Shown here: positions 1-31,092 of the stretch, in pieces | How the letters are laid out: each line of letters begins with the position of its first letter | Numbering within the stretch: position 1 is the stretch's first letter | NCBI RefSeq assembly: GCF_000972385.1 | Contig: NZ_JXTE01000024.1 | Span: 1 to 64,000, forward strand | Reading direction: 5' to 3' | Length of the DNA: 64,000 bases | Origin: Streptomyces sp. WM6386 | Lineage (GTDB): Bacteria; Actinomycetota; Actinomycetes; Streptomycetales; Streptomycetaceae | Made by a program: the position numbers and the translations under genes | Notes under the pieces: generated by a model | What the model was told of the DNA's origin: nothing | What the model saw: the letters and a program-made list of their open reading frames with translations, nothing else | The model's database searches: none

Positions 1-1275
1 GTGCTGGTGGCGGGGCGGCGGGGCGGGTGTGGGATGGAGGAGGAGGCCGCCGCTCGGGTCGTGGCGTTGTTCGACGGGGACCGGGGCAGTCGGCGGGCCC
101 TGGGGCTGGCCCGGCTGGCTCGGGCGTTGGCCGTGTTCGGGGGTGACGACAGCTGTGGGGCCGAGCGGGTCGACGAGGCCGCCCGGCTCATCGGCGTCGC
201 CGCGCGGCCACCCGTGCCGCCCGGCTCCGGGCTGCCCGCCGACCGCGGTCCCGTCACCCACGACGGCGACGGCGAGCGGCGGCCCGAGCCCGGGCCCGCG
301 AAGCCGGAACCGGTCTCCGACGACGGCCCCGCGGACCGGATACCCGGCGCCGCCGTCGCCGTGCCCGCCGGACCCGCCGAGGCTCTGGACACCTTCGCCG
401 CCGACACCGGAGACGGCGTCGGCTCACCCTTCCCCGAGGACGACGCCCGGTTCCTGCGGGAGTTCGCCCCGCTGCGGATCCCGTGGCAACGGCGCCCGGA
501 GCCCAGTTCGGCGCGCGGTCCGGTGATCGGCGTACGGTCGGCCACCACCCTGCGCGACCTCGCCTTCGTCGCCACCGCCATCGAGGCCGCCAAGCACCAG
601 AACCTCCCCGGCCGCCGCGCCCTGCGCACCGACGGCGACGGCCGCCTCGTGGTGCTGCCCGGCGACTTCCGCAGCTACGCCCGGCTCCCCGTCGCGGAAC
701 GCATGCTGGTGCTGCTGCTCGACCACACCTGCCGCCGCGGCTGGGACTGGCAGCCCGCCCTCGCCCCCTACCTTCAGTGGGCCTACACCGGACGGGCCTC
801 CATCTGCATGGTCGAGGTCGGCAACCGGGACGCGGCACACGAGCTCAAGGCCGACCACTTCGTCGCCCGCAGCGTCCTGGACCCCCGCGTCGGCCGTGCC
901 CTGCACCGCCCGGCCGGGCGCAGCAGCCCCCTCGCCCACGGCCTGGCGATGACCGACCAGTTGCTGCGCCGCGCCTTCCAACAGCGCTCCAACCTCGTCG
1001 AGGCATGGCTGGTGGTCGTCTCCGACGGTCGTGGCAATGTTCCGCTCGACACCGGCACGGGCGACCGGCTGCCCGGCCCGGTGCGCCGTACCGGCATCGA
1101 GGACGCGCTCTCGGCGGCCGGCCGGATCGGCGCGATGGGGCGGATGCGGCTGCACTCCGTGGTCGTGGACGCCGCCCGCCAGCCGTACCCGGACCTGACG
1201 TTCCAACTCGCCGACGCGCTCGGCGGAGTGACCGTCGCCGGGCGTACCGCACGGGGGGTGACCGGTGTCCGCTGA
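1..1275 (+). CDS. vWA-domain-like protein of a conflict module, possibly 5'-incomplete
   Basis: The C-terminal half reads as a von Willebrand A-like domain. It has a hydrophobic strand ending LLLDHTCRRG near residue 235, where MIDAS DxSxS would be expected, then SPLAHGLAMTDQLLRR near 309 and VVVSDGRGNVPL near 338-349, as in Mg-chelatase-D type vWA domains. The first MIDAS motif is degenerate (DHTCR), so metal-dependent ligand binding may be altered. The N-terminal 150 residues are Pro/Asp-rich and probably disordered. The reading frame is open at base 1, so the true start may lie upstream; an ATG at 34 is an internal alternative. It overlaps the CHAT gene by 11 bases, implying co-translation. 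I infer a regulatory or scaffold role for the CHAT and TIR/NB-ARC proteins downstream. The exact family is not certain. Confidence 0.6.
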   Translation: MLVAGRRGGCGMEEEAAARVVALFDGDRGSRRALGLARLARALAVFGGDDSCGAERVDEAARLIGVAARPPVPPGSGLPADRGPVTHDGDGERRPEPGPAKPEPVSDDGPADRIPGAAVAVPAGPAEALDTFAADTGDGVGSPFPEDDARFLREFAPLRIPWQRRPEPSSARGPVIGVRSATTLRDLAFVATAIEAAKHQNLPGRRALRTDGDGRLVVLPGDFRSYARLPVAERMLVLLLDHTCRRGWDWQPALAPYLQWAYTGRASICMVEVGNRDAAHELKADHFVARSVLDPRVGRALHRPAGRSSPLAHGLAMTDQLLRRAFQQRSNLVEAWLVVVSDGRGNVPLDTGTGDRLPGPVRRTGIEDALSAAGRIGAMGRMRLHSVVVDAARQPYPDLTFQLADALGGVTVAGRTARGVTGVR

Positions 1276-2566
1276 ACCGTCCGGCCCCCGCGGTCTCGGC
1301 GGGGCGATCCCGCTGGGGCCCGGCATGCCCGCCCGGCCGCCGGCGCCCGAGCCGCTGGCCGCGCCGCGCCCCGCCGCCGTACCGGATCATGTGGCCGAGC
1401 CCCAGGAAGCCGTACGGCTGCCCGCCGCACCCGTGGACCCGGACGCCCGGCTGCCCGCCGGGTTCGCGAAGCTCTCGGTGCAGCGGGCCTACGGTGAGCC
1501 GGGGCAGGACGCGTTCTGGCTGACCGGGCACAGCGGTGAGCTGGAGAGCCGTCTCGACTCCGAGTACACCCGGCTGCGCCCGGACGACCTGGTGCTGCAC
1601 AACCTGCGGCCGGGCAGCTCGATGCCGCCGAGCGAGATCCTGCTGGGGCTGGCCGAATGGTCCCAGGGCCAGGACCCCCTGGTCCGCTGGATCAATGTGC
1701 TGCGGGCCCGGCACGGTGCGGAACTGCAGCTGGTGATCTGGGACGACACGGACTACGACATCCCCTGGGAGCTGCTGCATCTGACGGACCACCAGGAACA
1801 CGGGCTGGTCGCCGGGATCCTGGGCGCCCTGGTGACGGTGGTGCGCTGGACCACCGTCCGCGAGGCCGGGACCACCCCCTTCGGCACCCCGGCGTCCTGC
1901 GCGGGCCATGTCCTGGGCTACTACGCCGAGCAGATGAGACGGGACGTCGAGGTGTTCGAGGAGTATGTGCACCGCGCGCACATCGGCACCCCGCGGACCT
2001 TCCTCACCGAACTCACCCGGCCCGACCTCGGCGCCGGCCTCGTCTACATGGGGTGCCACGCCGAGTACGGCGCCCGTGCCCACGAGGTCAGGATCGCCTC
2101 CGTCAGCTGGAGCGACCTCAACCGGCAGGCCATGCCCGCGCTCCGGGACGGGTCCACCCTCGTCTGCCTCAACGCCTGTGAGTCCGGGCGCCTGTTCGAC
2201 AACCGTGGGCGTGGGGAGAACGCCCTGCGGGGCTTCGCCGAGCTGTTCCTGCGCAAGGGGGCCGGCGGCTGCATCGCCACGTCCGGGAAGGTCGGCGACG
2301 ACATCGCCCATCTGCTGATCAAGGAGCTGGTGGGCCGGGTGTGCGCCGACCCGGACCTGCCCGTCGCCCGTGCCCTGCGCGAGTTCCGGGCCAGTGCCGT
2401 GGCCCGGTTACCCGACCCGCTGTCGTGGCTCGACGTCGGCAGCCGCGCCTACACCGAGCGGCAGCAGGAGATCCTGCTGGTTCTCTACAGCTTCATGTTC
2501 CTCTACTTCGGACATCCGCTCACCACGCTCAGGCTGCGGGTGCGCGCCCAGGAGGTGAGGGCATGA
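1265..2566 (+). CDS. CHAT-domain caspase-like protease
   Basis: After a Pro-rich N-terminus of about 65 residues, the protein has a CHAT (caspase HetF-associated with TPRs) fold. The strand QLVIWDDTDYDIPWELLHL is the typical front half. The predicted catalytic His is H265 in YMGCHAEYG and the predicted catalytic Cys is C305 in CLNACESG, followed by GGCIATSGKVGD. Both catalytic residues are present, so activity is expected. CHAT proteases act in bacterial immunity and cell death when released by a sensor. Here the GTG start lies inside the upstream vWA-like gene, and the stop overlaps the next ATG (ATGA at 2563), so vWA-like, CHAT and TIR/NB-ARC proteins look like one co-translated unit. The substrate is unknown. 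Confidence 0.85.
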   Translation: MSAEPSGPRGLGGAIPLGPGMPARPPAPEPLAAPRPAAVPDHVAEPQEAVRLPAAPVDPDARLPAGFAKLSVQRAYGEPGQDAFWLTGHSGELESRLDSEYTRLRPDDLVLHNLRPGSSMPPSEILLGLAEWSQGQDPLVRWINVLRARHGAELQLVIWDDTDYDIPWELLHLTDHQEHGLVAGILGALVTVVRWTTVREAGTTPFGTPASCAGHVLGYYAEQMRRDVEVFEEYVHRAHIGTPRTFLTELTRPDLGAGLVYMGCHAEYGARAHEVRIASVSWSDLNRQAMPALRDGSTLVCLNACESGRLFDNRGRGENALRGFAELFLRKGAGGCIATSGKVGDDIAHLLIKELVGRVCADPDLPVARALREFRASAVARLPDPLSWLDVGSRAYTERQQEILLVLYSFMFLYFGHPLTTLRLRVRAQEVRA

Positions 2567-5500
2567 CCGGCGACGCCTCCTCCTTGCTGGTCGAGCCGCT
2601 GGTCGGCTGGCCCCGCAAGGCGCAGGCCGGGCAGAGCTATCTCGTCACCGTCGACCTCAACGGCCCGGCGGGGGACGAGGACTGGCCCTACGAGGAGGAG
2701 GAGTTCGACTTCGGGGTGGCCCTGGACGGCGCCCCGCACTTCGTGTGCGAGGCCCTGAGCGAGCCCAGCGTGGTCCTGCACCGCTTCGGCGGCACGTACG
2801 GCCCGGCGCGTTTCGTGGTGACCGCCGACCGCACGCCCGGGCCCGGCACGATCTGGCTGACCATCACCAACCGCTGGGGGGTGCCGGTCCGTACGGTCGA
2901 GCTGCCCAGCGAGATCGTCGCCGAGACGGTGCCCGCAGGACCGGGACAGATCGTGGTGCCCTCGGCGAACGGCCGCCCCGCCACCCTCCCCGGCTCCACC
3001 CGTCCCGGCACGCTCCCCGCTCCCCGCCCCTCCGACCCCTGGTCCCCCGACCACGTCACCATCAGCTACGCGGGCTCCCACCGTGCCTGGGCCACCTGGA
3101 CCGCGCACCAGCTTCAGCGGCACGGCTGCCGTACCGATCTGCTGCGCTGGGACCCGCCGCCGGGCGTCCCGCTGAACTGGCTGCTGAGCGATCTGCTCGG
3201 TGCCCCGGGCCGCATTCTGCTGCTCCTGGACGAGGGGTATCTGCGGCTCGGCCACCGCACCGAGGCCGAGTGGGCCGGGGCGCTGGCCGACGTGGTCGCC
3301 CCGCGTCTGGACCGGTTCGCGGCGGTCGACCTGTCCACCCGTGCCCTGCCCGCCTCGGCCGCTGTACTGGGCCCGCCCGCCCTCAGGGACCTGGACCCGG
3401 CGGAGGCGCTGCGCCGGCTGCTGGCGGCGCTCGGTCTGGAGCACACCGAGCCGGACGCCGAGGAGGACGTACCCGTCGCGCCGCGCTTCCCGGACGCGCC
3501 GCCGGCGGTGTGGAACGTGCCGCGCCGCAACTTCCGCTTCACGGGCCGCGATCCGGTCCTGGAGGAGCTGCGCGCCCTGTTCGAGAGCGGCGGTCCGGCC
3601 GGGGCGCGGGTGGCACTGCGCGGGATCTCGGGGGTGGGCAAGAGCCAGATCGTGATCGAGTACGCGCACCGGTTCGCCAACGAGTACGACGTGGTCTGGT
3701 GGATCAGCGCGAGCTTCCGGGCCACCGCCCGCCAGCAGTTCGCCGACCTCGCCGACCGGCTCCAACTCACCGACGCCCGGGCGCTGGGCGAGCGGGTGCG
3801 CGCGGTGCGGGAGGCGTTGCGCACCGGCCGCAGGCGCTGGCTGCTCATCGTGGACAGCGCCGACGACATGGAGCAGGTCGACGACCTGCTGCCGGAGAGC
3901 GGCGGCCATGTCGCGATCACCACCCTCACCCGCGGCTGGGCGGCCTCGGGCGGGGTCGCGGAGATCCAGGTGGACCGGTTCACCCGGGCGGAGAGCGTCA
4001 GTTACGCCCGCCGGCACGTGGAGCGGCTCACCGAGGAGGAGGCCGACCAACTCGCCGAGGCCGTGGAGGACTTCCCGCTGCTGCTCGGGCAGACCGCGGC
4101 CTGGCTGGAGGCCAACAGCCCGGTGCCGGCCGCCGATTACATCGGCCGGCTGCGCGGGGCGGACGCGGACGTCATCGGCATCCAGGTCTCCTCCGACTAC
4201 CCGATCGGCTTCAGGACCAGCTGGGCCATCACCCTCGACTCCCTGGAGCAGGACAACCCCAAGACGACGGAACTCCTGCGCCTGTTCGCCATGTTCTCGC
4301 CCGGCTCGATCCCGGTGCGCCAGCTCCAGCACGCCCGCCCCGGCGACCTGCCGCCCCATCTGGCGGAGCTGGCCGCCGACCCGGTGCGCTGGCAGCGGGC
4401 GCTGGCCCGGCTGGCCGAGTCCACCGCCGTACGCAGGGACTTCGTGCAGACCTCGGACGGCGACACCTATGTCGACAGCGTGGAGATGCACCGCCTCTAC
4501 CACCGCTTCCTGCGCCGTACGCTCTCCCCCGCCGACCGTGACGAACTGTCCGCGGTGGCCTGCCGGGTGCTGGTCTCGGCCGATCCGCAGAGCCCCTCCG
4601 ACGTGCGCGCCTGGCCGACGTACGCCGGACTGCTGCCGCATCTGTATCCGTCCGGCGCGCTGGAGAGCGCCGAGGACTCGGTGCGCGAACTCGTCCTGAA
4701 CTGCATCGAGTACCTGCGGCTGCGGGACGAGGAGAGCACCGGACTCACCCTGTGCGAACAGGTGCTGGCGCGCTGGCGGGTACGGCTGCCGCCGACCCAT
4801 CCGTCGATGCTGGTCCTGGTCCACCAGCACGCCAACATGCTGCGACGCTGCGGGCGTTACCGGGAGGCGGAGGCCGTCGGGCGGGCCGTCGTGGAGCAGC
4901 TGGAGTACGAGCGGGCGCCCGACGACGCGGACCTGCTGCGGGCCCAGGTCGGGCTCGGTGGGACCTTGATGGCGCTGGGCCTGTTCGAGGAGGCGCACCA
5001 GCTCTGCGACCGGGTGTGGCGCGCGTACGACGCCCTGGAGGGGCCGGAGGCGCCGCACACCCAGGGGTCGCTGCACAATCTCGGCGTCGCCCTCGGGCTG
5101 CTGGGCCGCTATCTGGAGGCGGCCGCCGTCCACCGTGAACTGCTGGCCCTGCGGGAGCGGTTGCTGCCCCGCAACCATCGGCTGACCCTGCTCACCGGTC
5201 TCACGTACGCCCGTTCGCTCAGGCTCCTGGGACGCCACCGGGAGGCCGCCGCGCTCCAGGACACCAACACCCGGCTGCACCGCGAGACCATGGGCGAGTA
5301 CCACACCCAGACCTTGCTGGCCCTGCACAACCAGGCTCTGTGCCTGCGGCGTTCGGGCGACTACGAGGGTGCCGGGGCCCTGTTGCGCGGACTCGTGGAG
5401 CAGTGCCGGCAGTTGCAGGGCGCACGGCATCCGATGACGTTGATGATCCAGGCCGACCACGCCTCCTTCCTGCGTTCGCACGGCGATCCCCGCGAAGCCG

Positions 5501-5892
5501 CCGAGCTGACGCTCCAGGTCTCCGAGGACTACCGGCATCTGCTCGGCGAGGACCATCCGAACACCGTGGGCGTGCAGGGCAACCTGGGGCTGGTGTTCTG
5601 GCGTCTGGGGGACCACGCGGGGGCTCGGCGGCTGGTGGACCAGGCGCTGCGCGGGATGACGGCCGCGCTCGGCGCCGACCACCCGTGGACGCTCGGCTGC
5701 GCCCTCAACACGGCGGCGGTACGGCGACTTTCGGGGCTTGAGGAGGAGGCCCTCGCCAGGCGCGAGGACACCCTGCGCCGGGCGCGGGGGGCCGTCGACG
5801 AGGGGCATCCGCTGCTGCTGGCCTGCGTGGCGGCGCTGTCGACGGCCGCGGACGAGCCGCCGTACTGGGACTTCGAGCCGCAGCCGATCTGA
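2563..5892 (+). CDS. TIR / NB-ARC (STAND) NTPase with C-terminal TPR repeats
   Basis: The protein has 1,109 residues from the ATG that overlaps the CHAT stop; the frame extends further upstream, but that part is a shadow of the CHAT gene. A beta-rich N-terminal domain (about 5-115) is followed by a TIR-like domain starting VTISYAGSHRAWATW near 165. Then comes an NB-ARC module: RRNFRFTGRDPVLEELR near 325, Walker A GISGVGKSQ near 354-362, and a Walker B-like strand WLLIVDSADD near 427. Many TPR units follow from about residue 740 to 1060 (for example HNLGVALGLLGRYLEAA). STAND proteins with TIR domains sense invasion and oligomerise; TIR domains often cleave NAD. It resembles the TPR proteins of FxSxx-COOH loci, but no such peptide gene is nearby. 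Inferred role: sensor and switch for the adjacent CHAT protease. Confidence 0.82.
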   Translation: MTGDASSLLVEPLVGWPRKAQAGQSYLVTVDLNGPAGDEDWPYEEEEFDFGVALDGAPHFVCEALSEPSVVLHRFGGTYGPARFVVTADRTPGPGTIWLTITNRWGVPVRTVELPSEIVAETVPAGPGQIVVPSANGRPATLPGSTRPGTLPAPRPSDPWSPDHVTISYAGSHRAWATWTAHQLQRHGCRTDLLRWDPPPGVPLNWLLSDLLGAPGRILLLLDEGYLRLGHRTEAEWAGALADVVAPRLDRFAAVDLSTRALPASAAVLGPPALRDLDPAEALRRLLAALGLEHTEPDAEEDVPVAPRFPDAPPAVWNVPRRNFRFTGRDPVLEELRALFESGGPAGARVALRGISGVGKSQIVIEYAHRFANEYDVVWWISASFRATARQQFADLADRLQLTDARALGERVRAVREALRTGRRRWLLIVDSADDMEQVDDLLPESGGHVAITTLTRGWAASGGVAEIQVDRFTRAESVSYARRHVERLTEEEADQLAEAVEDFPLLLGQTAAWLEANSPVPAADYIGRLRGADADVIGIQVSSDYPIGFRTSWAITLDSLEQDNPKTTELLRLFAMFSPGSIPVRQLQHARPGDLPPHLAELAADPVRWQRALARLAESTAVRRDFVQTSDGDTYVDSVEMHRLYHRFLRRTLSPADRDELSAVACRVLVSADPQSPSDVRAWPTYAGLLPHLYPSGALESAEDSVRELVLNCIEYLRLRDEESTGLTLCEQVLARWRVRLPPTHPSMLVLVHQHANMLRRCGRYREAEAVGRAVVEQLEYERAPDDADLLRAQVGLGGTLMALGLFEEAHQLCDRVWRAYDALEGPEAPHTQGSLHNLGVALGLLGRYLEAAAVHRELLALRERLLPRNHRLTLLTGLTYARSLRLLGRHREAAALQDTNTRLHRETMGEYHTQTLLALHNQALCLRRSGDYEGAGALLRGLVEQCRQLQGARHPMTLMIQADHASFLRSHGDPREAAELTLQVSEDYRHLLGEDHPNTVGVQGNLGLVFWRLGDHAGARRLVDQALRGMTAALGADHPWTLGCALNTAAVRRLSGLEEEALARREDTLRRARGAVDEGHPLLLACVAALSTAADEPPYWDFEPQPI

Positions 5893-5999: not shown

Positions 6000-6536
6000 T
6001 CAGTCGTCCGAGGAGCGGCAGCCCTTCGGGAACTCGGTGTCACCGTCAGGAGTGGCCAGGAAGAACACGTCGATCCTGACGTTCCCGGAGGGCCCGCCCT
6101 TCCAGTAGCCCCGCTTCGGAGCGTTTCTGAAGCGGGGCATCTCCTTGGTGATGACGGAGTTGACCCGCTCGGCGGCCGCCTGCCCCGGGCCCGGCTCCGG
6201 AGCCGTACCGAAGGAGAGCACAAAGCCCGCCGTACGGCCGTCGACGCCGGCCGAGCGGAGCTGCTCGGTGAACTGACCGCGCACGGAGGCGGCACTGCCC
6301 GTCTTCACGGTGAAGCTGCAGGGCTTGAGCACCAGCCCCTGCTCCGCGACCTGGGCGCTCTCCGACGGACTCGCCGTCTCGGACGGGGTCGGGGAGGGGC
6401 CCGGTGGATCGGGCCGTTCCTGCTTGGGCAGGGAGCCCAGCGCGATGACGAACAGCAGCAGCAGGAGGTCGGCGAAGAGCCAGCCGGCGAGCAGGACGGT
6501 ACGCCCCGACCCGCTCCGCCCGGGTCGGTAGGTCAC
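6000..6536 (-). CDS. MotB/ZorB-like single-pass membrane protein
   Basis: I chose the GTG at 6536 because it overlaps the upstream stop (GTGA) and gives 178 residues; a longer frame starts at 6611 inside the neighbouring gene. The short basic N-terminus is followed by one membrane segment (about 13-34) reading VLLAGWLFADLLLLLFVIALG. The Asp near residue 23 sits where MotB/ExbD/ZorB proteins carry their proton-binding aspartate. A Pro/Ser/Thr-rich stalk and a folded extracytoplasmic C-terminal domain (about 75-175) follow. I cannot prove an OmpA-type peptidoglycan-binding fold. Coupling to the two-TM coiled-coil gene resembles MotA/MotB and ZorA/ZorB pairs. Inferred role: ion-channel or envelope-sensing half of a membrane module serving the GTPase operon. 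Confidence 0.6.
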   Translation of the reverse strand: MTYRPGRSGSGRTVLLAGWLFADLLLLLFVIALGSLPKQERPDPPGPSPTPSETASPSESAQVAEQGLVLKPCSFTVKTGSAASVRGQFTEQLRSAGVDGRTAGFVLSFGTAPEPGPGQAAAERVNSVITKEMPRFRNAPKRGYWKGGPSGNVRIDVFFLATPDGDTEFPKGCRSSDD

Positions 6537-7687: not shown

Positions 7688-7735
7688 TCCATGTCATGCG
7701 GTGTCATTCGGTCGAGGTCGGGCGTGAGACGGGGA

Positions 7736-20997: not shown

Positions 20998-21025
20998 GCG
21001 CGGGAACATTACAGGGGGTACCCCA

Positions 21026-22081: not shown

Positions 22082-22746
22082 CGAGATCGCCCGACCTCCT
22101 GGTACGCGCCGCCTTCTGCTACGCGGAGGCGGGCGACTACGCCCAGGCCGCCCGGTGCCATGAGCAGGCGGGGCACCGGCTGAAGGCGGCCGAGCTGTGG
22201 GAGCAGGCCAAGGATCCGGCGCGTGCCGCCGAGTGCTGGCTGCGCGAGGGCCGGCCGGGCCGGGCCGCCGAGTGCCTGCTGTCGATCGGGCGGTACGAGG
22301 CGGCCGCCGAGTGTTTCGAGGCGGCGGGCGACCTGCTGCGGGCGGGCTGGACCCTGGTCACCCTGACCCAGTCCTTCGCCACCGCGGAGCAGTTGTTCAT
22401 CACCGCCCGGCCGGAACCCGGGGGGCAGGAGCTGCGACGCCGGATCGGCCGCCGACTCGCCGCGGCCCGTGCGTACGGCGAGGCCGCCGCCCTGGTTCAG
22501 ACCCTGGCCGGGGCGGCGGACCGGCTGGGCGGCCTCTCCTCCGCCCGGGAACGGGAGGAGGTCGAGCTGTGGGCGGTGACCGCGGCGGAGCTGGTGGGCC
22601 GTCCGGATCTCGGCGCCCTGGTCTTCGCGGCCTCCTACCGGGCCGGCGTGACCGGGTGCGCCGACCGCTGGCAGCAGTGGGCGGCCCGGGTCCTGGGCGA
22701 CACCACCGGCGTGCCCACGGGACCCGCGCCCCCGCCCGCCTCGTAG
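22078..22746 (+). CDS. TPR-like helical repeat protein
   Basis: The 222-residue protein shows short regular helical repeats in its first half: AFCYAEAGDYAQAARCHEQAG, then ELWEQAKDPARAAECWLREG, then CLLSIGRYEAAAECFEAAGD. These are TPR/SEL1-like protein-interaction repeats. The second half is helical without clear motifs. It overlaps the previous gene by ATGA. It probably scaffolds the FtsH-like, MoxR and propeller proteins. The C-terminus of the following protein carries a similar repeat. Confidence 0.75.
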   Translation: MTRSPDLLVRAAFCYAEAGDYAQAARCHEQAGHRLKAAELWEQAKDPARAAECWLREGRPGRAAECLLSIGRYEAAAECFEAAGDLLRAGWTLVTLTQSFATAEQLFITARPEPGGQELRRRIGRRLAAARAYGEAAALVQTLAGAADRLGGLSSAREREEVELWAVTAAELVGRPDLGALVFAASYRAGVTGCADRWQQWAARVLGDTTGVPTGPAPPPAS

Positions 22747-22783
22747 CACCGCACCAGACTTGGATCCACGCATCGGGGGACGG

Positions 22784-24427: not shown

Positions 24428-27400
24428 CCGCGTCGGCGCCGGGGGTCCGGCACGCCCAGCGCATCCTCACCGTGCCCGCCGAGGACACGCACTGTCTGTG
24501 TCTGTCGCCCGACGGCACCGGTCTGGTGATCGTCCACGGCGGCGAGGTGGTGCGCTACGACGACGAGGGGCGCCCGGTGTGGCGGCTGCCCTGGCCGGGC
24601 CCGGCAGCGGTGGACATGGTGCCCGAGGGAACCGACGCCGCGGTGTGGAGCCCGGACGGCGACCGGCTGGTGCTGCTCGGCGCGGGCCGGCTGGTGCTGC
24701 TCGACGCGGACACCGGGCAGCTGCTGGAACTCCCCGCCCAGCTGCACGCCGAGGGCGAGGTCACCGCCGTGGGCCTGTCCCCCGACGCCCGGCTGCTGGC
24801 CGCCGGACTGCACTCCGGGGACGTGCTGCTGGTGGACCGCGCCGGTGACTCCGTGACGCGGCTGCGCGGCCTGGACCCGGTGGCGGAGGTGTGCTGGATC
24901 CCGGGCTCGCCGGACACCCTGTGCGTGGCCACCTCGACCTCCGCACAGCTGTGGGAGCCCCAGGGGCGCACCATGACCGGAACGCTCGGCGGTCCCTTCG
25001 ACGGGCTGCGCCGGGTGGCCCGTTCACCGGAGGGGCGTGCCGTCGCCGTGGAGGACTACGCGGGCATCAGACTGCTGGATCCCGGCTCCGGCCGGGAGCT
25101 GGGGCGGGAGTTCTTCCCGCACCGGATGAACGCGCTGTCGTTCAGCCACGACGGCTCCCTGCTGATCGCCGGTTCCGCCCTGGACGGGCTGCGGATCCTG
25201 GGCGCCCAGCTGGACCCACTGGGCCAGCTGCCGGGGCAGGTCACCGGTCCCGGCGAGCTCAGCCTGTCCGCGAGTGGCCTCTTCGCGGCCCGGCTGGACC
25301 CGCACACGGTCGCCGTGTGGGAGCCACCGGGTGCGGTGCCCCGCCCGCACCGGCACCGGGACCCCGCCGCGCTGCGCCGCTGGGCCAACGCGATGGGTGT
25401 CACCGTCGGCAAGGTGCACACCCGTTCGGCAGACCGTGCACAGGCGGTGCTGCGCCCGACGCGGCTCCCCGAGGCGGGCACGGGCTGTGTGGCGCCCGCC
25501 TTCGCGTGGTCCCTCGACGGGGCCCGCCACTGGTGCGAGTCGGGACCCGGCCGGCTCCTCGAACACGCCGCCGACGTGCCGGAACACGTCCGTGAGCAGG
25601 CGGTGCCGAGCTTCGCGCACGGCTGGTACGACGCGGCGTGTCTGGCAGGGCGCCGGCCGGTCCTTGTGCTGGCGTCGCACCACGAGAGCGGCGTCAACCG
25701 GCTGGTGGACCCGCGCACCGGCGAGGTGCTGGCCGAACGGCCCGCGGGTCAGGCGGTGGCCGCCGATCCGGTGCGCCCACTGCGCTGGGCCGCCCCCGAG
25801 CCCGGGGCCGATCCGGCGCGGCTGCTCGTCCACGACCTGGATCAGGAGGTCGGCGGCCTGCAGCGGCTGCCCGCCGAGGCGGGAGTACGCCGCCCCGCCT
25901 GGTCGCCGGACGGGACGCTGATCGCGGCCGGTACCCGCGGCCGGGTGATCGTGTGGGAACCGGGCCCGACCGGGCGGCTGCAGCGGACCAGGGTGCTGGA
26001 CTGGCCGGACCCGAACACCATGGTCTGCCGGGTGGCCTGGTCCCCCGACGGACACCGGCTCGCCGCGACGGCCGGCAGCGAGGGCGGTCCGGTGGTGGTG
26101 TGGGACACCGGCAGCTGGATCCGGCTGCGGGCCTTCGGACAGGCCGGCGGCCGGGACTGGGCGCCGGCGCTGTCCTGGTGCGCGGACTCCCGGCTGCTGG
26201 CCTTCCCGTCCGCGGACCAGGACTCGGTGGCCGAGGTGTGGGACGCCGAGGAGCCGCGCCGGGTCCGGGTGATACTGCCGCCGGACGGGGTGGGCGGCCA
26301 TCTGTGGACCCTGCGCTGGTCCCCGGTCGGTGACCAGCTGGCGGCCACCTACAACTCCGGGGCCGCCGTGCTCTGGGACCTGTTCACCGGGCGCTCGCAC
26401 ACGGAGTCGGCGGCGCTGCCGAGCGGCCAGGAGGAGCTGATCCGGATCGGCGCGGCCGCCGCGGGCGACGCGTTCGGAACGCCGCTGGATCTGCTGGCCG
26501 ATCTCCTGGCCCTGTTGCGCGGCTCCACTCCGCCCCGGCTGCGCACGCTGACCGACCACCGCGGTCTGCACGCGCTGCGCGAACTGAGCTGGCCCGCACC
26601 GGCGTTGGCCGGGCTGGTCCTGCTGCTGGTCGCGGATCTCACCCCCGACCCGGCGTATCTGGCACCCCCGGAGGTCACCTCCGACGATCTGGCCCAGGCG
26701 CTGGGCCGGGTCCTGGCAGGGTCCTCGGTACCGCACCTCCGGTCCGCGCCCCCGCTCACCGAACTCACGGCGGCCCTGGGGACGGTCGACGAACGGCTGC
26801 TCACGCTGTTGCGCATCCTCGGCCCCGAGGCGGTCGCCGCCGACCCCACGCTGCCCGCCCGAATGCGCCGGCTGCGGCTGTCGCTCACTCCTCCGGGGCC
26901 GGCCCAGCGGGCGCTGCTGGGTCTGCGGCTGCTGGACGGCGACGCCGGCCTCGCCACCGGCGGCCTGGGCGGCACCGGCCGTACGGGCCTGGCCAGGCAC
27001 GGCCCGGCCACCCGACTACTGCCCACCCAACTCGCCCTGCCGACCGAGCTGTTGCGGGCCCGGCACGCCCGCGACGAGCTGCTGTACCGCACCAGCAGCG
27101 GCCGGCTGCCGCGCGATCCGCACGGTGTCGTCCTGCTGCTGGACGACACACCCGCCACGCACGGCAAGGTGGGGTCCGTGCTGCGGCTCGCCGCGCATCT
27201 GCTGACCACCGCCTCGCTGCGTCTGCAACGCCCTTGCGCACTGGTGCCGTTGAGCGAGCCGTGGCGCTCCCGGCTGCTGGTGGGCCCGGAGGACCTGGTG
27301 CAGGTGTGGGCCGCCGGTTCACTGGAGGCCGGGGACGTCCGGACCGCGTTCCGGGAGGCGGAGGTGGTGGCCGGCCGGCTGACCGCCGACATGTCGGGGC

Positions 27401-27588
27401 CACCGCGGGTGATCCTGCTCTCGCACCCGTATCTCCAGCCGGTCCCACTGCCCGAGCTGCGCGAGCTTCGGGTGCACTATCCGCGCATCCCGTGGCGGGA
27501 GCCGGCCCGGCACCGCCATGTGCTGCCGCCCGACCCCTCGCCCGAGGAACTACGGGAGTCGCTCACGGCATTGCTGCTGGAGGAGTAG
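24424..27588 (+). CDS. WD40-type beta-propeller with C-terminal vWA-like domain
   Basis: The 1,054-residue protein has propeller blades marked by repeated SPDG motifs from about residue 15 to 660 (CLSPDGTGLVIVHGG, WSPDGDRLVLLGAG, WSPDGHRLAATAG, WSPVGDQLAATYN). A helical region (about 680-870) follows. The end (about 885-1054) resembles a vWA fold, with GVVLLLDDTPATHGKVG where the MIDAS should be and RVILLSHPYLQP where a DGR-like motif would be. The MIDAS is degenerate. In MoxR systems a propeller/vWA protein is the sensor or substrate platform. It is the last rightward gene and ends only 10 bases from the convergent peptide gene. Confidence 0.82.
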   Translation: MTASAPGVRHAQRILTVPAEDTHCLCLSPDGTGLVIVHGGEVVRYDDEGRPVWRLPWPGPAAVDMVPEGTDAAVWSPDGDRLVLLGAGRLVLLDADTGQLLELPAQLHAEGEVTAVGLSPDARLLAAGLHSGDVLLVDRAGDSVTRLRGLDPVAEVCWIPGSPDTLCVATSTSAQLWEPQGRTMTGTLGGPFDGLRRVARSPEGRAVAVEDYAGIRLLDPGSGRELGREFFPHRMNALSFSHDGSLLIAGSALDGLRILGAQLDPLGQLPGQVTGPGELSLSASGLFAARLDPHTVAVWEPPGAVPRPHRHRDPAALRRWANAMGVTVGKVHTRSADRAQAVLRPTRLPEAGTGCVAPAFAWSLDGARHWCESGPGRLLEHAADVPEHVREQAVPSFAHGWYDAACLAGRRPVLVLASHHESGVNRLVDPRTGEVLAERPAGQAVAADPVRPLRWAAPEPGADPARLLVHDLDQEVGGLQRLPAEAGVRRPAWSPDGTLIAAGTRGRVIVWEPGPTGRLQRTRVLDWPDPNTMVCRVAWSPDGHRLAATAGSEGGPVVVWDTGSWIRLRAFGQAGGRDWAPALSWCADSRLLAFPSADQDSVAEVWDAEEPRRVRVILPPDGVGGHLWTLRWSPVGDQLAATYNSGAAVLWDLFTGRSHTESAALPSGQEELIRIGAAAAGDAFGTPLDLLADLLALLRGSTPPRLRTLTDHRGLHALRELSWPAPALAGLVLLLVADLTPDPAYLAPPEVTSDDLAQALGRVLAGSSVPHLRSAPPLTELTAALGTVDERLLTLLRILGPEAVAADPTLPARMRRLRLSLTPPGPAQRALLGLRLLDGDAGLATGGLGGTGRTGLARHGPATRLLPTQLALPTELLRARHARDELLYRTSSGRLPRDPHGVVLLLDDTPATHGKVGSVLRLAAHLLTTASLRLQRPCALVPLSEPWRSRLLVGPEDLVQVWAAGSLEAGDVRTAFREAEVVAGRLTADMSGPPRVILLSHPYLQPVPLPELRELRVHYPRIPWREPARHRHVLPPDPSPEELRESLTALLLEE

Positions 27589-27598
27589 GCACCGCGGT

Positions 27599-27820
27599 TC
27601 ACCCGCAGAGCATCTGCTCGATCGCGTCGGGGCCCAGCGCCTCCAGCAGTCCCTCCAGCAGGTCGGGGCGGAAGGCGTCGCCGATCACCTGGACGCCCTC
27701 ACCGTCGGTCCTGATGCTGATGCGCACCAGGCGGCCCTCGGGATGGTCCTCGTACTCCTCGGGCTGGATGAGGTCGGGGATGTCCTCGACCATGCGGTAC
27801 TCGGGGGAGTCGTCGGCCAT
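27599..27820 (-). CDS. 73-aa acidic peptide, candidate radical-SAM-modified product
   Basis: The frame is open far upstream, but the ATG at 27820 lies four bases after the radical SAM stop and gives a compact 73-residue peptide. It is acidic (starts MADDSPEYRMVEDIPD) and ends with a short helix-like segment and the tail QMLCG, with its only cysteine at position 72. The pairing with a radical SAM enzyme next to an FtsH/MoxR system matches a known arrangement in which a small peptide is modified by the enzyme. I infer that it is the substrate, with the C-terminal Cys a possible modification or processing site. No leader cleavage site is obvious. Confidence 0.75.
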   Translation of the reverse strand: MADDSPEYRMVEDIPDLIQPEEYEDHPEGRLVRISIRTDGEGVQVIGDAFRPDLLEGLLEALGPDAIEQMLCG

Positions 27821-27824
27821 GGGG

Positions 27825-28898
27825 TCACCATCTTCCTTCCAGCTCGGTGCCGCAGTGCGGGCACCTTCCGTGGTCGAGCAGGGTGTTGCCGAGGGCCCAG
27901 ACGTCCCGTTCGACGACGGTGGTACGGCAGGTGGGGCATGCGGTGTTGCGGCCGGCGGCGCCCAGGGCGCGTTCCACGTACACGTGCCGCAGTCCTTCCT
28001 CGTGCCCGGTCCGCACCCCGGCCTCCAGGGCGGCCACCGAGGTGGGGGCATGGCCGGTGCGGCGGTGGGCCGGGGTGGCCCGCACCAGGTGCCAGGGGAT
28101 GGCGGGATCCAGCGCGGCCAGGGCGCGGGCGATCGGACGCAACGTCTTCTCCCCGGCCGTGAGTCCGGGGATCAGGGGCGTCGACACCTCGACCCAGACA
28201 CCGCGTTCACGCAGCCCGGTGAGCGCGTCGAGGACGGGGCCGGGGCGGGCCCCGGTGAGCTCCCGGTGGTCGTGTTCGTCCAGCGTCTTGAGGTCGACGT
28301 TGACGGCGGCGACATGCGGGGCGGCCAGTTCGACGGCCTCGGGGGTGAGGAAGCCGTTGCTCTTCCAGACGACGTCCACGCCGTGCGCACGGCCCGACTC
28401 CGCGAGTGCGACGGTGAGTTCGAGCGCCAGAGAGGGTTCGGTGTACGAGATCGCCACGCACCCGGAGCGGGCGGCGGCCTCCCGGACCACCTCGTCGGCG
28501 TCGACGGGCTCGGCGTCCCAGCCGACGGAGTCCTCCCGGCCGTACTGGGACATGCGGTGGTTGATGCAGTAGTCGCAGGCGAAGGTGCAGCCGGGGGCCG
28601 CGAGGGTGAGGCAGGGGGTGCCCGGGCGGAAGTGGTAGAGCGGCTTGCGCTCGACGGTGTCCCAGTGCCGTACGGACGAGGCGAAGGTCGCGGTCTCCAT
28701 CCGGTCGCCCGCCCGGCGGCGGACCCCGCACAGACCGGTCTCCCCGTCCTTCAGCGAGCAGCGGAAGGGACACAGCACGCACTGCACACGTCCGTGCCGC
28801 TGCCGGTGCAGGACCGCCGGCGTCCACTGCAACCCCATCGCGGTCCCCCGTCCGGTCGATGCGTCCTCGTCAGGGTAGCTCCGGTTCGGTGAACTCAT
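27825..28898 (-). CDS. Radical SAM enzyme (PFL-activase/AmmeMemoRadiSam-like)
   Basis: The 357-residue protein starts at an ATG that overlaps the metallopeptidase stop (ATGA). The iron-sulfur motif CxxxCxxC is at C104, C108 and C111 (GCTFACDYC). Upstream cysteines C40, C43, C47 and C57 form a metal-site-like cluster, as in AmmeMemoRadiSam proteins. A C-terminal zinc ribbon (CPTC ... CPHC) closes the protein. SAM-binding features such as SYTEPS are present. It should use S-adenosylmethionine to make a 5'-deoxyadenosyl radical. The 73-residue peptide encoded four bases downstream is the likely substrate. Confidence 0.88.
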   Translation of the reverse strand: MSSPNRSYPDEDASTGRGTAMGLQWTPAVLHRQRHGRVQCVLCPFRCSLKDGETGLCGVRRRAGDRMETATFASSVRHWDTVERKPLYHFRPGTPCLTLAAPGCTFACDYCINHRMSQYGREDSVGWDAEPVDADEVVREAAARSGCVAISYTEPSLALELTVALAESGRAHGVDVVWKSNGFLTPEAVELAAPHVAAVNVDLKTLDEHDHRELTGARPGPVLDALTGLRERGVWVEVSTPLIPGLTAGEKTLRPIARALAALDPAIPWHLVRATPAHRRTGHAPTSVAALEAGVRTGHEEGLRHVYVERALGAAGRNTACPTCRTTVVERDVWALGNTLLDHGRCPHCGTELEGRW

Positions 28899-30169
28899 GG
28901 GCGGATGTCCCTACTTGGCTCCCGAACGGCATCGAGCGCCCGCAACAGCAGCGGACCCGCCTCGGCATGGGCACGCAACTGGTTCTCCTCGGTGTTCGCT
29001 TCCCCGCGCCACGTGGCGGTGCGGGAGCCGGCGGTCCGCAGCCGCAGGACCTCCGCCTCGGCCCGCTGTGCCACTCCCCGTTGCTCGTATCCGGCCGGGT
29101 CGCTCTGGAAGGCGAGGGCGGCCGCGGCGAGCACGGTGGCCGCACGACCGCACTCGGACGGCCTGCGGCGCAGCAGCCGTTCGGCCCCGGCGTACACGTC
29201 CGCGGCGTCGGGCGGGACCAACAGGTCGGTGAGACGGCGGCCGCCGAGCCGGTCGTAGCCGGTGTCGAGGAGGGCGGAGACGAGGGCGGCGATCTCGGGG
29301 GCGTCGGGGGCATCCGCTTGGTTCGGTTCACCCGGTCCATCGGCGCACCGGGGATGCCCGGCCGCCGCGGCGGCGGCGCGGGCCAACCGTACTCGGGTCG
29401 CGGGCGGCGGATGTGGTCCGTCGGAGAAGGCCTCGGCCCCGGTGGACCCGCCCTCGGCGTCCAGCAGTTCCGCCAGGACATCCGCGTACGCCGTACCGCA
29501 GACGACGGCCGCGCAGGTGTCGGCGAACACCTCGCCCGTCCAGCGTTCCCAGTGGGGGACCCGGTCCGGGGGCAGGCCCGCCGTGCGGACCCGCAGACGG
29601 AGTTCGTCGCCGAGTGCGCAGTCGTCCTCGATGTGGTGTCCCGTCTCGTGGGCCACGGTCAGCAGCGCGGGCAGTTGTACGTCGTAGTGCCAGGGGACGT
29701 CGATGACGGGGAACGGCAGCCGGGCGGCGGCGGCGCGGCCCTCGCGGGTGTGGATGCCGCCGCGGGGCAGCAGGTCGTGGTAGGCGCTGCCGCGGCGGTG
29801 GGCGCGTGGCGAGGCCGTCCTGCTGAAGCCGACCAGCGGTGGCTCCTTGGGGCGACTGCCGGGCAGGTCGAGGACGGGTCGGTAACACTCCCAGGCCAGT
29901 TCGTCGGCGACGTCCAGGGTGCGCCGGTAGCCCCGGACGCGGCGCAGCAGGAACCGGCTGCGGAAGAAGTCCCAGACGTGGTGGAGGTCCAGGATCCGGG
30001 CCGGTACCTCGTCTCCCGAGCCGTCGGCCAGCCGCTCCCGGGCGTCGGCGACTCCCGCGTCGAGCAGGGCGAGGACGGCGTCGATCTGGGTGCGGTGCTT
30101 CTCCAGCGGGCCACCGCCGCGGCTGACCGCCTCCCACTGCCGCAGCTCCTCGGCCAGCCCGTCGACCAT
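28895..30169 (-). CDS. Zinc metallopeptidase (HExxH), cytoplasmic
   Basis: The 424-residue protein carries HETGHH at 174-179, with the zinc-binding HExxH and a third ligand candidate E213 in WTGEVFAD. There is no signal peptide or membrane segment, so it acts inside the cell. Known genes of this kind process small partner proteins. It is co-transcribed between the gasdermin-like candidate (41 bases upstream) and the radical SAM enzyme (ATGA overlap). It could mature the 73-residue peptide or activate the 293-residue neighbour by cleavage; both are inferences. The exact peptidase family is not clear. Confidence 0.78.
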   Translation of the reverse strand: MVDGLAEELRQWEAVSRGGGPLEKHRTQIDAVLALLDAGVADARERLADGSGDEVPARILDLHHVWDFFRSRFLLRRVRGYRRTLDVADELAWECYRPVLDLPGSRPKEPPLVGFSRTASPRAHRRGSAYHDLLPRGGIHTREGRAAAARLPFPVIDVPWHYDVQLPALLTVAHETGHHIEDDCALGDELRLRVRTAGLPPDRVPHWERWTGEVFADTCAAVVCGTAYADVLAELLDAEGGSTGAEAFSDGPHPPPATRVRLARAAAAAAGHPRCADGPGEPNQADAPDAPEIAALVSALLDTGYDRLGGRRLTDLLVPPDAADVYAGAERLLRRRPSECGRAATVLAAAALAFQSDPAGYEQRGVAQRAEAEVLRLRTAGSRTATWRGEANTEENQLRAHAEAGPLLLRALDAVREPSRDIRP

Positions 30170-30210
30170 GTGCCGTCGGACGGCCGCCCGGCGGTCGGGG
30201 AGCGCAGCGG

Positions 30211-31092
30211 TCAGAGCATCTCCCCGGCCGGGTCGCCCTGTGCCGATGCGTCGCCCTCGGACGCCGACGGATCACCCTCGGGCCGGCTCGGGAACTCCAG
30301 TACCGCCGACGGATCGTCGAGCGCCTCCTCCAGCAGCACTTCGGGCACGGGCTCACCGTCCAGCCCGCGGCCGGGCTGGACGGGCCCGAACTCCTCGCGC
30401 ACTGCGCCGAGCCACTTACGCCGCAGCCGCACGACCCGGTACAGCGGGGTGACGGCGTCCCCGATCCACTGGAATCCCAGGTGCCGGCTGCCCGCCACCT
30501 CGGCGCCGCCGGCCAGGTCGAGCAGCTGCACCGGCCCGGCACCCACGGAGGTGGCCAGTCTGAGCTCGACGGCCGCGTCCGCCCCGGCCGTGACCAGGAC
30601 GGCGGCGGCATCGGCACGCACGGTCTGGGTCACCGCGAGCAGGTCCTGGTCCCATCTCCCCTGCCAGTAGCGGCCGATGAGGTGCACGGCGAGCTGCCGG
30701 GTGTCCGGTACGGCGGTCTCCGTCAGACCCCGGTAGGCGACGAGGGCTCCGGTCTGCCGGCCGAACCGCAGCAGGACCCCGGTGTCCGCCTCCGCGAGTG
30801 CGGCGAACAGGGGATCGGTGGTGCCGGCCGCCTTGAACCGGAGGTCGATCCCGCCCCCGGCGTCGTAGAGGAACTCACCGCGCGCCTGGGGAGAGGTCAC
30901 CTCGTGATCGATCCGCCGCTCGGCGAGCGTCCCCGCGGGGCGCACGCTGCCCCGGGAGTTCTGCAGTACGTCTCCGACGGCGACGCGCTGGAGCAGGGGC
31001 CACGCCAGCCACCAGTCCTCACCCCACGCCGCCTTCATGGCGTCCCGGTACACGGCGAAAGGCTGGACCACCGCGCTCAGCTCCTTCCCCAC
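30211..31092 (-). CDS. Hypothetical protein, possibly gasdermin-like
   Basis: The 293-residue protein (GTG start at 31092) is beta-rich. It has alternating strands such as LLAVTQTVRADAAAVLVTAGADAAVELRLATSV and a later stretch GFQWIGDAVTPLYRVVRLRRKW. This pattern recalls the N-terminal pore-forming domain of bacterial gasdermins, which are often encoded beside a protease, as here. Against this, it lacks the N-terminal cysteine seen in several bacterial gasdermins, and its acidic disordered tail (about 235-293) is unusual. The resemblance is weak and needs a structural check. It is first in the leftward module D operon. Confidence 0.5.
   Translation of the reverse strand: MGKELSAVVQPFAVYRDAMKAAWGEDWWLAWPLLQRVAVGDVLQNSRGSVRPAGTLAERRIDHEVTSPQARGEFLYDAGGGIDLRFKAAGTTDPLFAALAEADTGVLLRFGRQTGALVAYRGLTETAVPDTRQLAVHLIGRYWQGRWDQDLLAVTQTVRADAAAVLVTAGADAAVELRLATSVGAGPVQLLDLAGGAEVAGSRHLGFQWIGDAVTPLYRVVRLRRKWLGAVREEFGPVQPGRGLDGEPVPEVLLEEALDDPSAVLEFPSRPEGDPSASEGDASAQGDPAGEML

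What the first reader, a model, noticed from the sequence alone, without database searches (positions are those of the whole stretch)
1..31092. Compound conflict island with four adjacent modules
Four modules sit side by side: vWA/CHAT/TIR-NB-ARC, pseudokinase/GTPase/GAP1-like/MotB-like, EAD1-CHAT plus ubiquitin-like conjugation plus FtsH/MoxR/propeller, and a radical-SAM peptide operon with a metallopeptidase. Their ends abut tightly (10 bases at 27589-27598). Each part resembles known comparative-genomics families, but this combination may be new. I infer one layered sensing and execution system, though it may only be neighbouring independent systems.
Basis: partly seen in the sequence, partly recalled or inferred. 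Interest (0 to 1): 0.9.

Follow-up and report, generated by a model that had tools for sequence, protein, structure and literature searches.

The report
Membrane GTPase module joined to ubiquitin-like system
A rare 25-kb gene cassette in Streptomyces joins a membrane-linked GTPase module to an already described bacterial ubiquitin-like tagging and protease system, and keeps this arrangement in a distant relative; the TIR/NB-ARC genes beside it are a separate system.

Summary
The genes are there, but the four-module division is not right. Modules 3 and 4 (11989-31092) are one known system, the 'FtsH ternary system' with ubiquitin-like conjugation and a radical-SAM peptide (Kaur et al. 2020; Pfam fvm families). 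Module 1 (1-5892) is the 3' part of a separate FxsB/TIR-NB-ARC-TPR peptide system, cut by the contig start; it lies beside the cassette in only 3 of 10 genomes.

The new part is module 2 (6000-11830): kinase-like protein, DO-GTPase, an unassigned partner protein, a two-TM coiled-coil protein and a TM protein with a folded domain. In 10 Streptomyces genomes it sits divergently beside the fvm genes, with at least four different flanks; nine are close relatives and one is distant (33-57% identity). A search by an fvm gene alone found module 2 beside it in 4 of 5 Streptomyces. Two non-Streptomyces genomes carry the five genes alone, and other fvm systems lack them.

The 'GAP1-like' label fails sequence tests; 'MotB-like' is inconclusive. 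Best guess: a membrane GTPase switch gates EAD1-Ubl tagging and CHAT recruitment. Coupling rests on linkage; the mechanism is inferred. I found no printed description of the joint cassette in the searches made.

The parts
1..1275 (+). Module 1 (not part of the cassette): ChlD/BchD-like vWA protein, cut at its 5' end by the contig start
   Evidence: TIGR02442 E=3.1e-13, TIGR02031 E=3.6e-12, both far below cut-off; 749 aa in S. canus; missing part on G000:C5
1265..2566 (+). Module 1: CHAT protease-like protein
   Evidence: PF12770 E=5.6e-8, over cut-off
2563..5892 (+). Module 1: TIR-NB-ARC-TPR protein of the FxSxx-COOH type
   Evidence: TIR_2 E=1.8e-11, NB-ARC E=8.7e-7, TPR_12 E=3.8e-33; NF040586 FxSxx_TPR E=1.3e-215
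6000..6536 (-). Module 2: one N-terminal TM with an invariant Asp (LAGWLFAD) plus an alpha/beta domain after the TM; 'MotB/OmpA-like' only tentatively
6533..7687 (-). Module 2: two-TM protein with a long helical/coiled-coil C-terminal part (the hydropathy cut-off finds one TM in the window, two in G934 and G485)
   Evidence: 22 proteins at E<=0.001, the query itself included; no Pfam match; TM and alignment; AF2 model poor, pLDDT 57
7736..9715 (-). Module 2: GTPase partner protein with a C-terminal TM; stands where GAP1 would stand but is not matched by Pfam GAP1-N2
   Evidence: hhalign probability 99.65%, E=4.3e-25, with the proteins directly downstream of the GTPase in 17 other loci; Pfam negative; PF20013 finds nothing here
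9712..10752 (-). Module 2: DO-GTPase (TRAFAC-type) with P-loop, DxxGE and KxD motifs
   Evidence: PF19993 E=2.6e-9, 37.5 bits, cut-off 27; motifs in 5 of 5 aligned rows
10799..11830 (-). Module 2: kinase-like protein with a C-terminal TM; degenerate in the window
   Evidence: PF00069 E=4.1e-8; of 5 aligned rows DFG is lost in 4 (window TESG; G961 keeps it), HRD is lost in 3 (window and G961 keep it)
11831..11988 (.). Divergent intergenic region between module 2 and module 3; better conserved at 11831-11900
   Evidence: between-clade identity 0.87 in the 70 bp upstream of the kinase, 0.68 in the middle, 0.82 in the last 24 bp; neighbours: kinase coding 0.81 (third positions 0.70), CHAT coding 0.70 (third positions 0.65)
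11989..12822 (+). fvm: EAD1-CHAT protease-like effector (an upstream start at 11965 is possible)
   Evidence: CHAT E=5.4e-9, EAD1 E=3.9e-6; His and Cys in 10 of 10 rows, no row obtained from 4 of the 14 loci given
12819..13475 (+). fvm: prokaryotic RING-like protein (likely E3)
   Evidence: Prok-RING_1 E=0.002, below cut-off
13477..14490 (+). fvm: E1-like ThiF/MoeB enzyme
   Evidence: PF00899 E=6.7e-44
14487..15992 (+). fvm: EAD1 - YukD-like Ubl - E2 fusion; conserved Ala-Gly between Ubl and E2
   Evidence: fvmYukDl_N E=1.7e-25, EAD1 E=9.9e-15, UQ_con E=8.4e-7; E2 Cys and linker A-G in 13 of 13 rows from 14 loci
15982..17061 (+). fvm: JAB isopeptidase
   Evidence: fvmJAB_N E=9.7e-61; HxH...SxxD in 13 of 13 rows from 14 loci
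17009..17866 (+). fvm: protein X1
   Evidence: PF19998 E=1.9e-94
17863..19782 (+). fvm: FtsH/CDC48-type AAA ATPase; the FtsH protease part is not matched
   Evidence: PF00004 E=7e-40; TIGR01241 matched only at 125-382 of 598
19831..20997 (+). fvm: MoxR ATPase with the GPTGTAKS P-loop
   Evidence: PF20030 bpMoxR E=5e-73; motif seen in the translation
21026..21820 (+). fvm: X2
   Evidence: PF20000 E=1.8e-71
21821..22081 (+). fvm: X3
   Evidence: PF19999 E=4.9e-32
22078..22746 (+). fvm: TPR-like protein
   Evidence: weak TPR matches only; conserved in 9 of 9 cassettes, the window included
22784..24427 (+). fvm: X7
   Evidence: PF20005 E=2.7e-113
24424..27588 (+). fvm: WD40 propeller protein; the C-terminal part is probably the divergent vWA (no Pfam vWA match)
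   Evidence: WD40 E=4.1e-15
27599..27820 (-). fvm: precursor peptide, ends QMLCG
   Evidence: PF20007 fvmRadSAM-pep E=7.3e-40; QM(L/M)CG in 5 of 5 rows
27825..28838 (-). fvm: AmmeMemo-type radical SAM enzyme
   Evidence: TIGR04337 E=1.1e-67, over cut-off
28895..30169 (-). Zincin-like metallopeptidase (HETGHH)
   Evidence: motif in the translation; no family match; present in 8 of 9 cassettes
30211..31092 (-). Last gene of the cassette, no known domain
   Evidence: no family match; present in 8 of 9 cassettes

Best explanation
The unit is a 25-kb cassette, 6000-31092: the known FtsH ternary system (complex variant, with ubiquitin-like conjugation and its radical-SAM peptide) joined to a five-gene membrane GTPase module. 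Module 1 is an unrelated neighbour. Proposed working, inferred unless marked: (a) the module-2 proteins with TM segments, one carrying a folded domain after its TM, sense an envelope event and flip the DO-GTPase; (b) this state, together with MoxR/propeller-vWA and the FtsH-like AAA protein, remodels a cytosolic complex; (c) JAB cuts the EAD1-Ubl from its E2 fusion, probably after the conserved Ala-Gly, and E1, E2 and RING attach it to targets; (d) EAD1-EAD1 contact brings the CHAT protease to tagged proteins, which stops growth or kills the infected cell; (e) the radical-SAM-modified peptide amplifies the response. Shown here: gene content, intact JAB/E2/CHAT motifs, conserved linkage, a partly conserved divergent intergenic region and the independent existence of both halves. 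Steps (b) to (e) follow Kaur et al. 2020, except the Ala-Gly site, which is mine, as is the link from (a) to (b).
For: Same order and orientation of 5/5 module-2, 13/13 fvm and 2/2 peptide/radical-SAM genes in 9 of 9 cassettes read whole, the window included, down to 33%, 39% and 57% mean identity in G934; the tenth, Streptomyces sp. S3, is split over two contigs. In a search by fvmJAB alone, 5 of 392 Streptomyces have fvm and 4 of these 5 have module 2 beside it. At least four different flanking contexts, with edges at the TM-protein gene and the last gene, or in G934 the radical SAM gene. One GTPase match per cassette genome at E<=1e-10, and it is the one in the cassette. Cassette-type fvm form one side of a branch in the AAA tree of 14 rows, 100/99, though the tree tool warns of long branches. 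Intergenic identity between clades is 0.87 in the 70 bp upstream of the kinase gene, against 0.70 and 0.65 at third codon positions of the flanking genes. JAB and E2 motifs 13/13, CHAT 10/10 of the rows obtained. Module 2 alone, in the same five-gene order, in G485 and G493; no fvmJAB anywhere in either genome.
Against: fvm exists without module 2: G887, G540, G564 and G613 have fvm and no module-2 GTPase at E<=1e-10 in the genome (G564 and G613 are 87% and 81% complete). Module 2 stands alone in G485 and G493. So neither half needs the other, and linkage may reflect shared mobility. No expression, binding or phage data. The MotB, GAP1 and vWA labels that would support the membrane-switch reading are not confirmed. 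Nine of the ten genomes are close relatives (fvm proteins at 76% or more to the window); only G934 is distant. The intergenic conservation is uneven (0.68 in the middle) and no higher than first and second codon positions of the kinase gene (0.86, 0.89).
Confidence: 0.55

Rival explanations
1. Defence-island neighbours: module 2 and fvm are independent systems that travel together because they share a mobile segment or hot spot, without functional contact.
For: Both occur alone; operons of conflict systems often cluster in the same regions (passage of PMC7159879). Module 2 diverges faster than fvm (65-67% against 76-79% for L003-L007).
Against: The same order and divergent arrangement is kept in a lineage at 33-57% identity and in at least four flanking contexts. 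A neighbour such as module 1 does not persist (3 of 10). Part of the shared intergenic region is conserved.
Confidence: 0.3
2. All four modules form one layered system.
For: Module 1 is adjacent in the window, in S. canus and in Streptomyces sp. S3.
Against: Not found beside the cassette in 7 of 10 genomes: L003-L007, G961 and G934, with 6.0-8.6 kb of flank each and further 10-kb stretches in three of them. In S. canus a roughly 2-kb multi-TM gene lies between, and module 1 belongs to its own FxsB operon. The FxSxx_TPR model has 23-45 matches at E<=0.001 in each of seven genomes, many of them partial or below cut-off.
Confidence: 0.04
3. Module 2 acts in envelope or developmental control, not in conflict, and the joint cassette couples a cell-envelope checkpoint to programmed cell death.
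For: Four of the five module-2 proteins of the window carry a TM segment. Related kinase-GTPase pairs lie by tubulin-like genes (2 of 2 large TM-free genes tested) and an FtsW/RodA-like gene (1 of 1 tested).
Against: Rare and patchy (fvmJAB in 5 of 392 Streptomyces; fvmX1 over cut-off in 1 of 327 genomes of the family), which is unlike a developmental core gene.
Confidence: 0.11

Closest known systems
FtsH ternary system, complex variant with Ubl tri-ligase (Kaur, Burroughs, Iyer and Aravind 2020, PMC7159879; Pfam fvm families)
   Same: AAA (FtsH-type), MoxR with a TAKS P-loop, propeller protein, EAD1-Ubl-E2, E1, RING, JAB, EAD1-CHAT, X1/X2/X3/X7, peptide plus Memo-type radical SAM and metallopeptidase.
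   Different: Carries a divergent five-gene GTPase module on the side of the EAD1-CHAT gene; the fvm loci of G887, G540 and G564 do not, and those genomes and G613 lack the GTPase altogether.
GTPase-centric systems (DO-GTPase/GAP1, same paper)
   Same: DO-GTPase2 over the Pfam cut-off; partner gene directly downstream; TM-bearing members; kinase neighbour.
   Different: No GAP1-N2 match; no tubulin, HSP70, PP2C or FNIII family matched in the module; kinase degenerate in the window; a two-TM coiled-coil protein and a TM protein with a folded domain instead.
Kinase-GTPase-partner loci of other Actinobacteria (L074-L092 and others, found here)
   Same: Kinase homologue beside or fused to the GTPase in 18 of 20 fetched stretches; partner protein homologous, hhalign 99.65% over 17 loci.
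   Different: Neighbours include tubulin-like (PF13809, L080 and L092) or FtsW-like (L074) genes; the Streptomyces profiles of the module-2 coiled-coil and TM proteins had no hit in the 20 stretches.
Zorya ZorAB / MotAB-type membrane motors (resemblance recalled; only a search listing seen)
   Same: A membrane pair of which one has an N-terminal TM with an invariant Asp and a folded domain after it.
   Different: No sequence-profile match to solved MotA/B or ZorA/B chains; fold comparison inconclusive; coiled-coil model poor and not searched.
FxsB cyclophane peptide systems with TIR-NB-ARC-TPR (module 1)
   Same: YxD-tail peptide, FxsB, ChlI- and ChlD-like proteins, CHAT, FxSxx_TPR in S. canus.
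   Different: Not part of the cassette.

Membership tests
FtsH ternary system (complex variant) | MoxR ATPase of the system with GXXXTAKS P-loop | tested here: met
   PF20030 E=5e-73; GPTGTAKS read in the translation; motif named in a passage of PMC7159879 section 22
FtsH ternary system (complex variant) | FtsH-type AAA component with active second domain | tested here: met
   PF00004 E=7e-40 at 422-549
FtsH ternary system (complex variant) | inactive first AAA copy | tested here: inconclusive
   no AAA match in residues 1-370; a degenerate domain could be missed
FtsH ternary system (complex variant) | propeller fused to divergent vWA | tested here: inconclusive
   WD40 found, vWA not matched by Pfam
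FtsH ternary system (complex variant) | E1, RING, EAD1-Ubl-E2 and JAB | tested here: met
   motifs; the RING match is below its Pfam cut-off (E=0.002)
FtsH ternary system (complex variant) | EAD1-caspase-like effector | tested here: met
   EAD1 and CHAT over cut-off
FtsH ternary system (complex variant) | peptide plus Memo-type radical SAM | tested here: met
   PF20007 E=7.3e-40, TIGR04337 over cut-off
GTPase-centric (GAP1-N2) system | DO-GTPase | tested here: met
   PF19993 37.5 bits, cut-off 27; below cut-off in L074 and G934
GTPase-centric (GAP1-N2) system | GAP1-N2 domain protein | tested here: not met
   no Pfam match; PF20013 has no match in the module-2 loci of G000, G485 or G493; hhalign to the single PF20013-positive protein of G667 gives probability 0.1%. 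A very divergent GAP1 is not excluded.
GTPase-centric (GAP1-N2) system | FNIII, tubulin, HSP70 or PP2C companions | tested here: not met
   no such Pfam match among the five proteins of 6000-11830
MotB / ZorB-like | OmpA-like domain after a TM with Asp | tested here: inconclusive
FxSxx-COOH/FxsB system (module 1) | FxSxx_TPR protein plus FxsB and precursor peptide | tested here: met
   NF040586 in the window; peptide NF041709 and FxsB TIGR04269 in S. canus; DNA match of that stretch on G000:C5

The most novel reading that the evidence does not exclude
A two-switch immune machine: a membrane GTPase complex with a kinase-like protein reads the envelope and licenses a cytosolic ATPase complex that cuts and conjugates a ubiquitin-like tag, so that a caspase-like CHAT protease is called to tagged proteins through EAD1-EAD1 contact. 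This would be a bacterial case of GTPase-gated ubiquitin-like signalling. The five-gene GTPase module would be a conflict system in its own right that has not been described.
Probability: 0.3. Interest if true: 0.8.

Novelty: new variant of a known kind. Interest (0 to 1): 0.55.

Why it matters
In the sections I read of the paper that predicted the FtsH ternary system, no trigger is assigned to it. A fixed joining to a membrane GTPase module names a candidate trigger and makes it testable: remove module 2 and ask whether Ubl tagging and CHAT activity still switch on. It also separates a five-gene GTPase module, which exists alone in other Actinobacteria, from the GAP1 systems already described. 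The conserved Ala-Gly at the Ubl-E2 junction gives a concrete site to test for JAB cleavage.

Tried and rejected
Four-module single system: rejected by gene order (module 1 in 3 of 10).

Reading the 10-base gap as a module junction: rejected, since it is a convergent end inside one system and varies between loci.

GAP1: Pfam negative for the window, for three GTPase-adjacent proteins elsewhere and for G934; PF20013 negative in the module-2 loci; hhalign to one PF20013-positive protein negative (single sequence as target, so a weak test). The homology kept is only to GTPase-adjacent proteins of 17 other loci; as controls, the coiled-coil and GTPase alignments against the same set gave probability 0.8% and 0.1%. 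A third control, with the WD40 alignment, was started but its result was not printed and is not used.

Kinase: I first noted DFG as lost in 5 of 5 rows (notebook); the alignment shows it kept in G961, so the count is 4 of 5.

PADLOC (10 of the proteins): no Zorya match; for the module-2 proteins given, only two weak GTPase matches, E=0.0036 and 0.013 (the kinase was not in that call). E1 matches E1-E2/BilD models and the AAA protein IetA models.

Plasmids: JAB no match; GTPase one match, on an 11.85-Mb Nonomuraea record labelled a plasmid.

A shared operator: the conserved block at 11838-11861 occurs once in the window; a different conserved block lies upstream of the last cassette gene. No shared box was seen, but no exhaustive motif search was run. 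The promoter scan found nothing in the intergenic region itself.

Sampling and dropped rows: the seven loci were fetched with the GTPase, so they contain module 2 by design; one search was run to correct for this. G343 and G613 were left out of the adjacency statement because their contigs end near the fvm genes. In the GTPase tree the cassette rows need two changes, because G430 (GTPase and partner without fvm, contig cut) falls beside them. Of the 27 GTPase-positive genomes, one is the window's own; of the other 26, 19 were fetched (20 stretches) and five more; two (G517, G592) were not read in context. In G493 the kinase-like gene was not found by the kinase profile and is placed by position and alignment.

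Full report
SETTING. The window is C157:1-64000 of a 9.2-Mb draft genome in 856 contigs, and starts at the contig's first base. Its nearest relatives in a genome-contig search are Streptomyces. Genes were called with a codon model made from the window and corrected by hand where it chose a shadow frame.

WHAT IS THERE. Module 1 (1-5892, +): ChlD-like vWA protein, CHAT protein, TIR-NB-ARC-TPR protein. Module 2 (6000-11830, -): kinase-like protein with a C-terminal TM, DO-GTPase2 protein, a 659-aa protein with a C-terminal TM, a 384-aa two-TM helical protein, and a 178-aa protein with one N-terminal TM. Modules 3 and 4 (11989-31092): EAD1-CHAT, RING-like, E1, EAD1-Ubl-E2, JAB, X1, AAA, MoxR, X2, X3, TPR-like, X7, WD40 protein, and convergently the fvmRadSAM peptide, radical SAM enzyme, metallopeptidase and one unknown gene. 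Eight of these genes match Pfam families named after the FtsH ternary or MoxR-vWA-propeller systems: fvmYukDl_N, fvmJAB_N, fvmX1, X2, X3, X7, bpMoxR and fvmRadSAM-pep.

MODULES 3 AND 4 ARE ONE KNOWN SYSTEM. Kaur et al. 2020 (PMC7159879; I read the outline and abstract, sections 21, 27, 28, 29, part 1 of 2 of section 35, and passages found by term) describe a complex FtsH ternary variant with a propeller-vWA protein, E1, RING, JAB, EAD1-Ubl-E2 and an EAD1-caspase-like effector (section 21). [quoted passage not shown] The window fits. Catalytic motifs are intact in the relatives that gave a row: JAB HxH...SxxD in 13 of 13, E2 Cys in 13 of 13, CHAT His and Cys in 10 of 10, out of 14 loci given. 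The peptide family lies with fvm in G564, G613, G887, G934, G941 and G961, but was not found in G343 or G540 (6 of 8 genomes).

MODULE 1 IS SEPARATE. In S. canus (L040) its homologues follow a YxD-tail cyclophane peptide, an FxsB radical SAM enzyme, a CU044_2847 protein and a ChlI-like AAA protein, next to a second FxsB/FxSxx_TPR cluster. In the window's own genome the missing front lies at the edge of contig C5, 96% identical over 2812 bases, so the window shows only the back half. It is beside the cassette in the window, S. canus and Streptomyces sp. S3, and was not found beside it in L003-L007, G961 and G934: 3 of 10. FxSxx_TPR matches number 23-45 per genome in seven genomes at E<=0.001, many partial or below cut-off.

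MODULE 2 IS JOINED TO FVM. A GTPase search in genome contigs gave 7 Streptomyces loci, all with module 2 beside fvm. Since the query was module 2 itself, I then searched with the fvm JAB family: 5 of 392 Streptomyces. Of these, G000, G961, G934 and G941 (the L006 record again) have module 2 in the same place, and G887 does not. Distinct cassette genomes: the window, seven loci, G961 and G934, that is 10. The 9 read whole have 5/5 module-2, 13/13 fvm and 2/2 peptide/radical-SAM genes; 8 of 9 also have the metallopeptidase and last gene. G934 is distant (33%, 39%, 57%), and its kinase-like and GTPase parts are one protein. Outside the edge genes the flanks differ in at least four ways, which defines the unit as 6000-31092.

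BOTH HALVES EXIST ALONE. The window's GTPase finds 27 of 394 class genomes at E<=1e-10, and fvmJAB_N 5 of 394; they overlap in G000 and in G343, there on different contigs. In G485 and G493 the five-gene module stands alone, and neither genome has fvmJAB. G430 shows GTPase and partner at a contig end, also without fvmJAB. G887, G540, G564 and G613 have fvm and no such GTPase at E<=1e-10. In 18 of 20 fetched GTPase stretches a kinase homologue is beside or fused to the GTPase; the two large TM-free neighbouring genes tested are tubulin-like.

LABELS THAT DID NOT HOLD. 'GAP1-like': the 659-aa protein is homologous to the GTPase-adjacent protein of 17 other loci, but is not matched by Pfam GAP1-N2. 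Module 2 should therefore not be filed as a GAP1-N2 system. 'MotB-like': an invariant Asp in the TM (44 of 44 rows) and a well-predicted domain, but the fold comparison does not separate OmpA-like from unrelated folds. 'FtsH': only the AAA part is matched. 'Pseudokinase': plausible for the window. In the five aligned rows the DFG is lost in the window (TESG), G934, G485 and G493, but kept in G961; HRD is kept in the window and G961 and lost in the other three. So the G961 protein may still be active.

HOW IT MAY WORK. The 158-bp region between the kinase gene and the EAD1-CHAT gene has a between-clade identity of 0.87 in its 70 bp next to the kinase, above the 0.70 and 0.65 of third codon positions, but 0.68 in the middle; both sides may be controlled together (inference). 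The EAD1-Ubl-E2 proteins carry an invariant Ala-Gly where the Ubl ends, in 13 of 13 rows including fvm without module 2; I propose this as the JAB cleavage site. The rest of the mechanism follows the cited paper, with the membrane GTPase as the proposed upstream switch. No functional data exist here.

NOVELTY. A search for the terms FtsH ternary, MoxR-vWA, DO-GTPase, GAP1-N2 and vWA-MoxR found 12 papers; only PMC7159879 holds both an FtsH ternary and a DO-GTPase term. The parts of it that I read do not describe the joint cassette; I did not read the rest, and its supplementary data could not be read. Six further searches listed nothing else on it by title or abstract start; only listings were seen. 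The halves are known or related to known kinds; the joint cassette and the five-gene module appear new within that limit.

Noticed in passing
window 27599-27820 and relatives: The precursor peptide of the radical-SAM operon ends in QM(L/M)CG in 5 of 5 aligned rows; a fixed C-terminal Cys-Gly could be the modified or activated end.
   Followed up: no
window 14487-15992: Invariant Ala-Gly right after the YukD-like Ubl in 13 of 13 rows, a likely mature Ubl C-terminus.
   Followed up: partly
L074:4875-6296: Gene downstream of a kinase-GTPase-partner set matches FtsW/RodA, PF01098 E=5.9e-38. Several other loci of the set have multi-TM proteins in the same place, not tested. A GTPase system with a cell-wall polymerase relative may be of interest.
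   Followed up: partly
L081, L091, L104: Kinase-like and GTPase parts fused into one protein in G092, G033 and G934, which suggests direct contact of the two.
   Followed up: partly
L040:7859-15343: Two FxsB/YxD cyclophane peptide clusters in tandem next to module 1 in S. canus.
   Followed up: partly
G000:C346:67745-68146: A GAP1-N2 domain (E=1.1e-44) elsewhere in the window's genome, so a classical GTPase-centric system may coexist.
   Followed up: no
L042:10679-11392 and L043:4448-5161: The FMN-binding part beside the ApbE gene is matched twice in S. canus and Streptomyces sp. S3, apparently as one 238-aa protein, against 135 aa in the window.
   Followed up: no
NZ_LT559118.1: An 11.85-Mb Nonomuraea gerenzanensis record is listed as a plasmid in PLSDB; by size it looks like a chromosome.
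   Followed up: no
window about 31110-31125: An invariant 16-base block GCGCAGGCTAGCAGCG in 9 of 9 aligned loci upstream of the last cassette gene, possibly part of its promoter.
   Followed up: partly
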